Shown piece after piece: positions 11,435-13,383 of a stretch of 27,023 nucleotides of DNA. The translations under genes and the position numbers were made by a program. The stretch lies in IMG/VR virus record IMGVR_UViG_3300023184_000447, positions 1-27,023 of that record; one strand, given 5' to 3'. This DNA comes from a virus. Within the stretch, counting starts at the first letter, position 1. Each line of letters starts with the position of its first letter. The notes beneath the pieces were generated by a model that worked only from the letters and a program-made list of their open reading frames with translations, was not told the DNA's origin and did no database searches.

Positions 11435-11509
11435 TTAGGCGATCAACACGCCGCAGAATTGCGGCCCGCTGCTCGTCAAATTACCGGCCCACCCAATAAG
11501 CTTAACAAC
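11435..11509 (-). CDS. Major capsid protein, exon 3 of 3
   Basis: These are the last 24 codons and TAA of the coat protein: VVKLIGWAGNLTSSGPQFCG then VLIA. Podovirus coat proteins of this family end with '..NQDA.VK.I.WAGNLT....QGV..A'. Exon 2 stops at NQDA, and this stretch continues it exactly in phase. Without splicing, the same bases would be read as the tail of an intron-derived ORF beginning near 11737, which has no homology-like features upstream of the VVKLIGW block. The next gene follows after 12 bases containing its Shine-Dalgarno. The exon starts with GTT immediately after the terminal G of intron 2. Confidence 0.88.
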   Translation of the reverse strand, partial: VVKLIGWAGNLTSSGPQFCGVLIA

Positions 11510-11757
11510 CATTCTATTACTTTCAGCCTTGCGGCTTACTGACCATTTCTGGCGGGGAAACTTCTTCGAATCTCCCTCACTCGCTTCTTTTGTTATACGA
11601 GTGTTTAGACTATCGCATCCGTTATTCACGGTTTTCTCACTTAGTCGTTCACGCTGCACGCTTACGCTGCTTGCGCCCTGTTGCCCACTTCTGGGTTTCC
11701 AAGTCAATAAGAGAAAATTTATAGACGCCATTTGCAAGCTTAATGCAAAGTAGGTTT
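11510..11757 (-). ncRNA. Group I intron 2 of the capsid gene (ORF-less)
   Basis: This is a 248-nt intron between codons Ala309 (GCT) and Val310 (GTT) of the coat protein. The last exon base is T and the last intron base is G, as group I splicing requires. P1: exon GACGCT pairs with intron GGCGTC (11724-11729) with the terminal T-G wobble; a hairpin TTTGCA/TGCAAA sits in its extension. P3: TTTTCTC (11711-11717) pairs with GAGAAAA (11632-11638). P7: GACTA (11642-11646) pairs with TAGTC (11608-11612). P8: CCGT/ACGG between them. P9: CACTCG/CGAGTG; a further hairpin AGCC-GCAA-GGCT precedes the 3' end. All core helices are present and the size is near the lower limit for self-splicing. Sequence shows the pairings; activity is inferred. 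Confidence 0.9.
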
Positions 11758-12603: not shown

Positions 12604-13302
12604 CCTATCGTTATGTTTCGGCTCTTTATCCGAAACCTGCACATTCCTTTTATGTGCAGAGCAGACTATCTCATCGCAAGTTTTTCGCTTGCTTGGTGGC
12701 ACTAATCTTTGCGCCATGACCTTTCGGCTTTCCAAGCTGCGCCAATCTACGTTTCAAGTTGCTTTCAGGTGATTGCGTAAAAGTTCCCGCCCTCGCCTTT
12801 GTCGCTAATCGTCCTCTGGCAATAGCATAAGGCGTTGGTTGAAACGAAACTTCATTTTCGTTTAGCAACAAGCCTTGCGCCCTGTAATGCTTCATCCAAG
12901 ACAACTCGCGCTCACGCTTCTCAATCACCGAAACTTCTGCTGGCATCGTTTCAAGCACCCGCATCTGAAACTGTCCAGCGTGATCGTTCCACGCTTCTTG
13001 CAACTTTGTAGAGCTATGCTTTCCCGTTTTCAGCAAACTTCTATGCTCTCGCATTCGCTTGCCAGGCTTACCTGCTGTGCAACCTATGTAAGCCGCGCCG
13101 GTACTTGCATCTTCTAATCCGTATATTGTCACCATTTGGGATACCCCTCTGTGGTTGATACTTACGCTTCGCGCTCGTGGGACTCAGCTTCCGCTTTGTC
13201 CTAGTCGTTACACCTTCAGCAACCTTTTAACTTTGCCGCTTGGCTCGGTGTTGGCATCGCAGCTTTTCACCGAATTCACGAAGTTTTTTAACGTCTAATT
13301 TA
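12604..13302 (-). ncRNA. Group I intron 1 of the capsid gene, encoding a GIY-YIG nuclease
   Basis: This 699-nt intron follows Val27 (GTT) of the coat protein; the first intron bases TAA would be an in-frame stop. P1: exon AACGTT pairs with intron GACGTT (13290-13295), with the terminal T-G wobble at the splice site. The 5' core has GAATTCGGTG...CACCGAGCC (P4/P5 region) and GGTGTAACGACTAG, typical of IB-like bacterial and phage introns. P7: GACTA (13202-13206) pairs with TAGTC (12664-12668). Two perfect 3' hairpins follow, CTGCACAT/ATGTGCAG and GTTTCGG/CCGAAAC, then GATAGG with a terminal G. The nuclease gene lies between the two P7 strands, so it occupies the P3/P8 region. I could not settle P3. 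Confidence 0.9.
12671..13135 (-). CDS. GIY-YIG homing endonuclease (intron-encoded)
   Basis: This 154-residue protein starts at ATG 13135 after GAGGGG. The N-terminal nuclease domain has TIYGLEDASTGAAYIGCTAG (residues 3-22, the GIY and YIG elements with Tyr5 and Tyr16), catalytic Arg27 region KRMREHRS with His31, and a downstream Glu in EKRERELSWMKHY (Glu75 or Glu77), then LNEN near 91-94. The C-terminal third is basic (RRLAQLGKPKGHGAKISATK) and likely contacts DNA. It lies inside intron 1, and its TGA ends two bases before the 3' strand of P7, an arrangement in which ORF and ribozyme share sequence. Such enzymes cut intronless alleles and drive copying of the intron. Target site is presumably the capsid gene near codon 27. 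Confidence 0.9.
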   Translation of the reverse strand: MVTIYGLEDASTGAAYIGCTAGKPGKRMREHRSLLKTGKHSSTKLQEAWNDHAGQFQMRVLETMPAEVSVIEKRERELSWMKHYRAQGLLLNENEVSFQPTPYAIARGRLATKARAGTFTQSPESNLKRRLAQLGKPKGHGAKISATKQAKNLR

Positions 13303-13383
13303 AACGTTGTCTGCCAGCTCACCGGAGCGACTTTGAATGTTGGTCGCAATGATGTCACTAACAGAACTATTGGCAAATGCCAT
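13303..13383 (-). CDS. Major capsid protein, exon 1 of 3
   Basis: These 27 codons start at ATG 13383 with AAGGAG nine bases upstream. They read MAFANSSVSDIIATNIQSRS then GELADNV. This is the conserved N-arm of BPP-1-type podovirus coat proteins (MAFAN..S.II...I..R...LADNV), which in intronless homologues runs straight into T.NNALL.RL. Here a stop (TAA) follows at once, and the matching TNNNALLRRL resumes 699 bases later. The exon is too short to be called by itself, so automated annotation would likely miss the true start of the coat protein. The assignment rests on the family pattern plus the P1 pairing at its 3' end. Confidence 0.9.

What the first reader, a model, noticed from the sequence alone, without database searches (positions are those of the whole stretch)
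11510..11757. Very compact 248-nt ORF-less group I intron near the capsid C-terminus
P1, P3, P7, P8 and P9 helices can be matched by eye in under 250 nt, close to the lower limit of known group I introns. It separates the last 24 codons of the coat, so unspliced RNA would yield a coat with a wrong tail (KPTLH). It could be a mini-intron mobilised in trans by the nuclease of intron 1 or be an old immobile one.
Basis: partly seen in the sequence, partly recalled or inferred. Interest (0 to 1): 0.72.

Follow-up and report, generated by a model that had tools for sequence, protein, structure and literature searches.

The report
Compact ORF-less group I capsid-gene intron
A 248-letter piece of RNA that can probably cut itself out interrupts this phage's coat-protein gene; it belongs to a large, apparently uncatalogued family of small introns that has settled repeatedly in coat genes of phages and seems to spread between phages although no DNA-cutting enzyme was found with it.

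Summary
On the minus strand, 11757-11510 is a 248-nt group I intron after codon 309 of a 333-codon coat gene, leaving 24 codons downstream. All 80 intronless IMG/VR relatives examined carry the predicted joint NQDA|(V/I)VKL uninterrupted. The P1 to P9.3 architecture, with P9.0 and a short P10, is present. On 46 homologous introns, 39 of 55 pairs show compensatory change (covariation 0.50 against 0.16 shuffled).

Neither proposed origin is supported. Intron 1's GIY-YIG nuclease is in only 2 of 29 contigs carrying this intron. The intron does not look old and immobile: copies over 96% identical sit in coat alleles whose exons are under 88% identical, and exon identity rises close to the intron. 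This suggests recent transfer with co-conversion, probably by a nuclease in trans or by recombination during co-infection.

The intron belongs to a family that Rfam's group I model missed in every locus tried. It occupies at least eight precisely resolved sites in two coat families (PHROG 9953 and 283), up to three per gene, and also other head, portal, tape-measure and RNR genes. Splicing itself is untested. At 248 nt it is compact but not extreme.

The parts
11510..11757 (-). Intron 2: ORF-less group I intron, 248 nt; 3'-terminal omega G at 11510
   Evidence: Exon joint from 80 intronless relatives; covariation on 46 homologues; model R1 212 bits
11758..12603 (-). Coat exon 2 (codons 28-309); its last six bases GACGCT (11763-11758) are the P1 partner
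11435..11509 (-). Coat exon 3 (codons 310-333 and stop); first bases GTT are the P10 partner
11740..11757 (-). Intron 5' end, read in frame from exon 2 as KPTLH-stop (TAA)
11724..11729 (-). Internal guide GGCGUC, pairs with exon GACGCU to form P1; U.G pair at the splice site
   Evidence: sequence
11730..11732 (-). AAU, candidate P10 partner of the 3' exon RUU
   Evidence: 3' exon begins RTT in 28/28 carriers against 26/80 intronless alleles
11711..11717 (-). P3 5' strand UUUUCUC
   Evidence: all 7 P3 pairs covary
11632..11638 (-). P3 3' strand GAGAAAA
11677..11703 (-). P4-P5 domain (CUUG/CAGG enclosing CCCA/UGGG)
11651..11676 (-). P6 and P6a
   Evidence: P6 covaries CG/GC/CG types
11642..11646 (-). 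P7 5' strand GACUA (guanosine-binding helix)
   Evidence: invariant in 46 introns
11608..11612 (-). P7 3' strand UAGUC
   Evidence: invariant in 46 introns
11619..11631 (-). P8 hairpin CCG/CGG
11578..11603 (-). P9 hairpin CACUCG/CGAGUG
11555..11576 (-). P9.1 hairpin
   Evidence: 8 covarying pairs
11525..11553 (-). P9.2 and P9.3 hairpins
   Evidence: P9.3 less consistent (64% of cells paired)
12604..13302 (-). Intron 1: 699-nt group I intron after codon 27, with GIY-YIG ORF 13135-12671; a different intron family
   Evidence: Rfam 28.3 bits; Pfam GIY-YIG; exon joint ADNV|T
13303..13383 (-). Coat exon 1 (codons 1-27)

Best explanation
The element is a genuine, compact, ORF-less group I intron. 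Inferred mechanism: the transcript folds into the group I core, GACGCU pairs with the guide GGCGUC to form P1, exogenous guanosine bound in P7 attacks after the U.G pair, and exchange at omega G 11510 joins codons 309 and 310. Ribosomes that enter before splicing stop after KPTLH, short of the catalytic core. It moves between phages by DNA recombination at the same coat-gene site, most likely trans homing by a nuclease it does not encode, or recombination in co-infected cells; intron 1's nuclease is not needed. Structure, exon joints and family membership are shown by sequence. Splicing and the transfer step are inferred.
For: Uninterrupted relatives with exactly the predicted joint. Strong covariation, including the P3 pseudoknot helix. 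Each precisely joined intron has a guide matching its own 5' exon. GACGCT in 29/29 carriers against 20/80 intronless alleles and 3' RTT in 28/28 against 26/80. Introns over 96% identical in alleles with exons under 88% identical, third positions as low as 58%, with exon identity raised within about 60-90 nt of the intron compared with intronless pairs. Intron 1's nuclease in only 2 of 29 carriers.
Against: No RNA evidence for splicing. No candidate trans nuclease was identified: HNH_3 is in 5/29 carriers and 4/20 intronless contigs, LAGLIDADG_1 in none; many contigs are fragments, and the GIY-YIG profile search missed the window's own gene. The pairs in the flank comparison are not independent, part of the upstream signal is P1 constraint, and the downstream side is affected by differing gene content.
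Confidence: 0.85

Rival explanations
1. The intron is mobilised in trans by the GIY-YIG nuclease of intron 1 in the same gene.
For: The nuclease is present in the window, inside the same gene, and in L206. T4 MobE trans homing is a precedent (PMC2988022).
Against: It is absent from 27 of 29 carriers of intron 2. It lies about 850 coding bases from the intron 2 site, and its own intron belongs to another family. Absence from a carrier does not exclude an earlier trans donor.
Confidence: 0.06
2. An old, vertically inherited, immobile intron.
For: Intron and exon identities correlate across pairs (r 0.81), and the same-site introns are compatible with a single clade (AU p 0.115).
Against: Introns up to 99% identical in alleles with 58-68% third-position identity, patchy presence, and the flank gradient.
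Confidence: 0.08
3. New sites are reached by reverse splicing: the excised intron inserts into a transcript with a 4-6 nt match to its guide, followed by reverse transcription and recombination. This would explain spread between sites, with recombination then spreading each site between alleles.
For: P22-type coat sites 40, 52, 110 and 384 share CCGU with a matching guide, and 388 and 393 share CCAU; CCGT is 1.9% of T-ending tetramers in these genes and exists in some intronless alleles at these sites. The family sits in several unrelated head genes.
Against: Noticed after the fact; guides could instead have adapted after insertion. Needs a reverse transcriptase, and reverse splicing alone would not carry exon flanks. 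The window's own site uses a different target (CGCU).
Confidence: 0.25
4. The intron is domesticated: incomplete splicing makes a useful minor coat form ending in KPT(L/I)H.
For: The tail and stop are kept in the 28 same-site introns read through although codons change and the stop is TAA or TGA.
Against: Most relatives lack the intron. Early in-frame stops are common in related introns (38 of 41 distinct 5' regions against 21.6 expected) and are explained more simply by keeping ribosomes off the ribozyme core. Few independent changes underlie the pattern.
Confidence: 0.05

Closest known systems
Mycobacteriophage Cluster J introns: LittleE capsid intron (about 820 bp, with endonuclease ORF) and BAKA/Optimus 265-bp minor-tail intron (PMC3706429)
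   Same: Group I-type introns in virion structural genes, spliced in infected cells; a small insertion in one gene shares 156 bp at 98% with a larger ORF-bearing intron in another gene.
   Different: Only two examples in six phages of an actinobacterial host; here the family is found in hundreds of matches at many sites and is mostly ORF-less in the two main coat families. No sequence comparison between the two was made.
ORF-less introns mobilised in trans: T4 nrdB intron by MobE, and collaborative homing (reviewed in PMC2988022, PMC3984707)
   Same: Introns without a working nuclease of their own that can spread by DNA cleavage and repair directed by a separate nuclease.
   Different: No candidate nuclease could be tied to the intron here; the target is a coat gene.
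Rfam RF00028 Intron_gpI
   Same: Same core architecture (P3-P9, invariant P7, omega G).
   Different: The model does not report this intron or any family member in five sampled loci.
MW202674.1 (podovirus ctn9Y15) intron, deposited as a split P22 coat gene
   Same: 81.6% identical over 211 nt of the core; 8-bp P1 match to its own exon.
   Different: Different coat family (PHROG 283) and site (residues 85|86), with a different P1-P2 region.

Membership tests
Group I introns | Conserved core P3, P4, P5, P6, P7, P8 with P3 pseudoknotted | tested here: met
   55-pair structure, 94.6% paired, 39 compensatory pairs
Group I introns | P1 formed by an internal guide, with U.G at the 5' splice site | tested here: met
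   GACGCU/GGCGUC; guide matches own exon at all precisely joined sites
[quoted passage not shown]
   G at 11510; the joint is fixed by intronless relatives
Group I introns | Self-splicing with a guanosine cofactor | not testable with these tools
   Needs in vitro transcription or RNA reads
Rfam RF00028 (curated model) | Score at or above gathering threshold of 50 bits | tested here: not met
   No report for intron 2 at gathering or E 10; none in five family loci at E 0.1. This limits the model's reach, not the class assignment.
Mobile (homing) group I intron | Encodes its own homing endonuclease | tested here: not met
   248 nt, no endonuclease ORF
Mobile (homing) group I intron | Transfer between alleles with co-conversion of flanks | tested here: inconclusive
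   Intron identity far above exon identity and a flank gradient, but pairs are not independent
Trans homing by intron 1's GIY-YIG nuclease | Nuclease co-occurs with the intron | tested here: not met
   2 of 29 carriers
Group I subgroup (IA, IB, IC, ID) | Diagnostic peripheral elements | not tested
   Only noted that no P7.1/P7.2 or P5abc-like extension is visible in alignment A1; subgroup not assigned

The most novel reading that the evidence does not exclude
A nuclease-free lineage of compact group I introns that colonises new sites in phage head genes by guide-directed reverse splicing and then sweeps through alleles by recombination, making capsid genes of these phages recurrent targets of nearly autonomous RNA parasites.
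Probability: 0.2. Interest if true: 0.75.

Novelty: new member of a known kind. Interest (0 to 1): 0.5.

Why it matters
The element itself is an ordinary kind of ribozyme. The family around it appears unrecognised: covariance matches number in the hundreds, yet Rfam's group I model reports none in the loci tried, and the one annotated relative was deposited as a broken coat gene. Coat genes called from such genomes are therefore probably mis-annotated. The family also offers a natural system, with many sites, guides and intronless alleles, for asking how introns that carry no endonuclease spread.

Tried and rejected
Rfam at gathering and permissive thresholds: no hit for this intron and no group I hit in five family loci. 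A chance fold was rejected by covariation and by conservation at the same site. Core swapping between lineages looked possible in a quick tree, where the window's core grouped with P22-coat site-86 introns, but a careful tree did not keep it and monophyly of the same-site introns is not rejected (AU p 0.115), so it is not claimed. Family searches for GIY-YIG, HNH_3, HNH and LAGLIDADG_1 in carriers showed no association: HNH_3 in 5 of 29 carriers and 4 of 20 intronless contigs. The GIY-YIG profile search missed the window's own nuclease, so its negatives carry little weight. Some 5' joins (residues 48, 56, 206, 356) were not resolved by the script and are not counted as resolved sites.

Full report
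Observation. The window is a virus record of 27,023 bases. The coat gene lies on the minus strand and is interrupted twice: exon 1 13383-13303, intron 1 13302-12604 (699 nt, with a GIY-YIG ORF), exon 2 12603-11758, intron 2 11757-11510 (248 nt), exon 3 11509-11435. Splicing gives a 333-aa protein that matches PHROG 9953, major head protein, at E 1.2e-102.

Exon joint. All 80 best IMG/VR relatives match residues 1-333 of the spliced protein in one uninterrupted stretch, and the site tally found 80 intronless alleles with NQDA directly followed by mostly IVKL or VVKL. The closest, L003, is 98% identical in protein and 89.3% in DNA.

Structure. A single-sequence fold is more stable than shuffles (z -3.1). 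An 82%-identical core was found in MW202674.1, and a pattern scan for P7 plus J8/7 returned many more loci. From 46 dereplicated cores a group I structure with 55 pairs was tested: 94.6% of cells pair, 39 pairs show changes on both sides, and the covariation score is 0.502 against 0.159 in shuffles and at most 0.106 when partners are slid. P3 covaries at every pair, P7 is invariant, and P8, P9 and P9.1 covary. RNAalifold independently recovered P3, P4, P5, P6, P8, P9 and P9.1. In P9.0 the single A-U row among G-C rows is the window's, from reading the alignment. P1 is GACGCU with GGCGUC, with U.G at the splice site; a short P10 (AAU with RUU) fits, since the 3' exon begins RTT in 28 of 28 carriers and 26 of 80 intronless alleles.

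Same-site distribution. Twenty-nine IMG/VR contigs, the window included, carry an intron at exactly this joint, 231-248 nt long where both ends are held. The window's extra length is partly a hairpin in the P1 loop shared with L204, L206 and L219. All 29 have GACGCT at the end of the exon, against 20 of 80 intronless alleles.

Wider family. A covariance model of the cores gives 171 matches in the window and 99 other loci, 57 in 40 further loci and none in 80 intronless coat loci. The loci were found by patterns from the family and many sequences helped build the model, so the counts are not a prevalence estimate, and the lower-scoring hits include parts of larger introns. Of 180 hits examined, 54 high-scoring ones lie in the PHROG 283 (P22-type) coat and 28 in the window's coat family. 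In the P22-type coat, seven sites are resolved precisely (before residues 40, 52, 86, 110, 384, 388, 393) and four more are located by their 3' exon only; L091 and L133 carry three introns in one coat gene. Eighty intronless P22-type coats confirm the uninterrupted gene. Sampled exons of other hits match PHROG major-head families 1357, 1328 and 4523, portal 156, tape-measure proteins and ribonucleotide reductase; several had no match. Larger relatives in other coat genes carry LAGLIDADG-type ORFs on the opposite strand. Three matches in bacterial assemblies include two Burkholderiales MAGs, a weak hint at hosts. Rfam's group I model reported nothing in five sampled loci.

Mobility. Pairs such as L205/L209 (intron 99.2%, exon 80%, third positions 58%) and L163/L207 (99.1, 86.5, 68) show introns far more alike than their host alleles. 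Structural constraint alone is a poor explanation because introns at this site differ by up to about 23% between groups. In 58 pairs with introns over 96% and exons under 88% identical, exon identity is 97, 90, 81% going upstream in 30-nt bins and 92, 90, 87% downstream, against 81, 78, 81 and 78, 67, 71 in intronless pairs. The first upstream bin is partly P1 constraint and the downstream side is confounded by gene content, so I call this co-conversion-like, not proven.

Which nuclease? Intron 1's protein is found only in the window and L206's contig among 29 carriers. HNH_3 is in 5 of 29 carriers and 4 of 20 intronless contigs; LAGLIDADG_1 is in no carrier while four positive loci ring. Four carrier contigs of 33-36 kb (L205, L213, L220, L087) show none of the families searched. 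The GIY-YIG profile search failed to see the window's own gene, so that negative is weak. Trans homing has precedent (T4 MobE; collaborative homing; PMC2988022, PMC3984707).

New sites. Sites 40, 52, 110 and 384 of the P22-type coat share CCGU before the intron and a matching guide, and 388 and 393 share CCAU; 356 is a probable fifth CCGU site. CCGT is 1.9% of T-ending tetramers in these genes. This is what reverse splicing predicts (route described in PMC3984707), but it was noticed after the fact.

Stop codons. In 38 of 41 distinct 5' regions an in-frame stop precedes P3, with 21.6 expected; a few of those joins are unresolved. Introns in other coat families read through the P3-P4 region without a stop, so this is not universal.

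Verdict. The feature is real and is a group I intron; the class is known and splicing was not tested. What is notable is the apparently uncatalogued family, its repeated presence in head genes and its spread without an evident nuclease.

Noticed in passing
L219 around 2129-1875, L206 4859-5142, L171 3078-2801: The same coat gene carries further compact insertions (about 250-280 nt) near residues 22, 72 and 83-94 whose core motifs resemble intron 1's family rather than intron 2's: ORF-less relatives of the nuclease-bearing intron.
   Followed up: partly
L192, L182, L132, L112, L183: Larger relatives of intron 2 in other coat genes carry a LAGLIDADG-type endonuclease ORF on the strand opposite to the coat gene, between P4 and P7.
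   Followed up: partly
window 11757-11740 and same-site loci: The read-through tail KPT(L/I)H-stop is kept in all 28 same-site introns read, with synonymous changes and TAA/TGA alternation.
   Followed up: partly
L002 3692-5207 (MW202674.1): The public record annotates the intron-split P22 coat gene as two separate coat proteins plus a hypothetical protein inside the intron.
   Followed up: yes
L259 and L261 (IMGVR_UViG_3300031759_000072): One 38-kb contig yields a P22-type coat match near both ends; repeat, redundancy or two copies not resolved.
   Followed up: no
L208 8314-8508; L157 1117-1251: Model hits next to residues 281 and 68 of the window's coat family suggest additional sites of the intron-2 family in that gene.
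   Followed up: no
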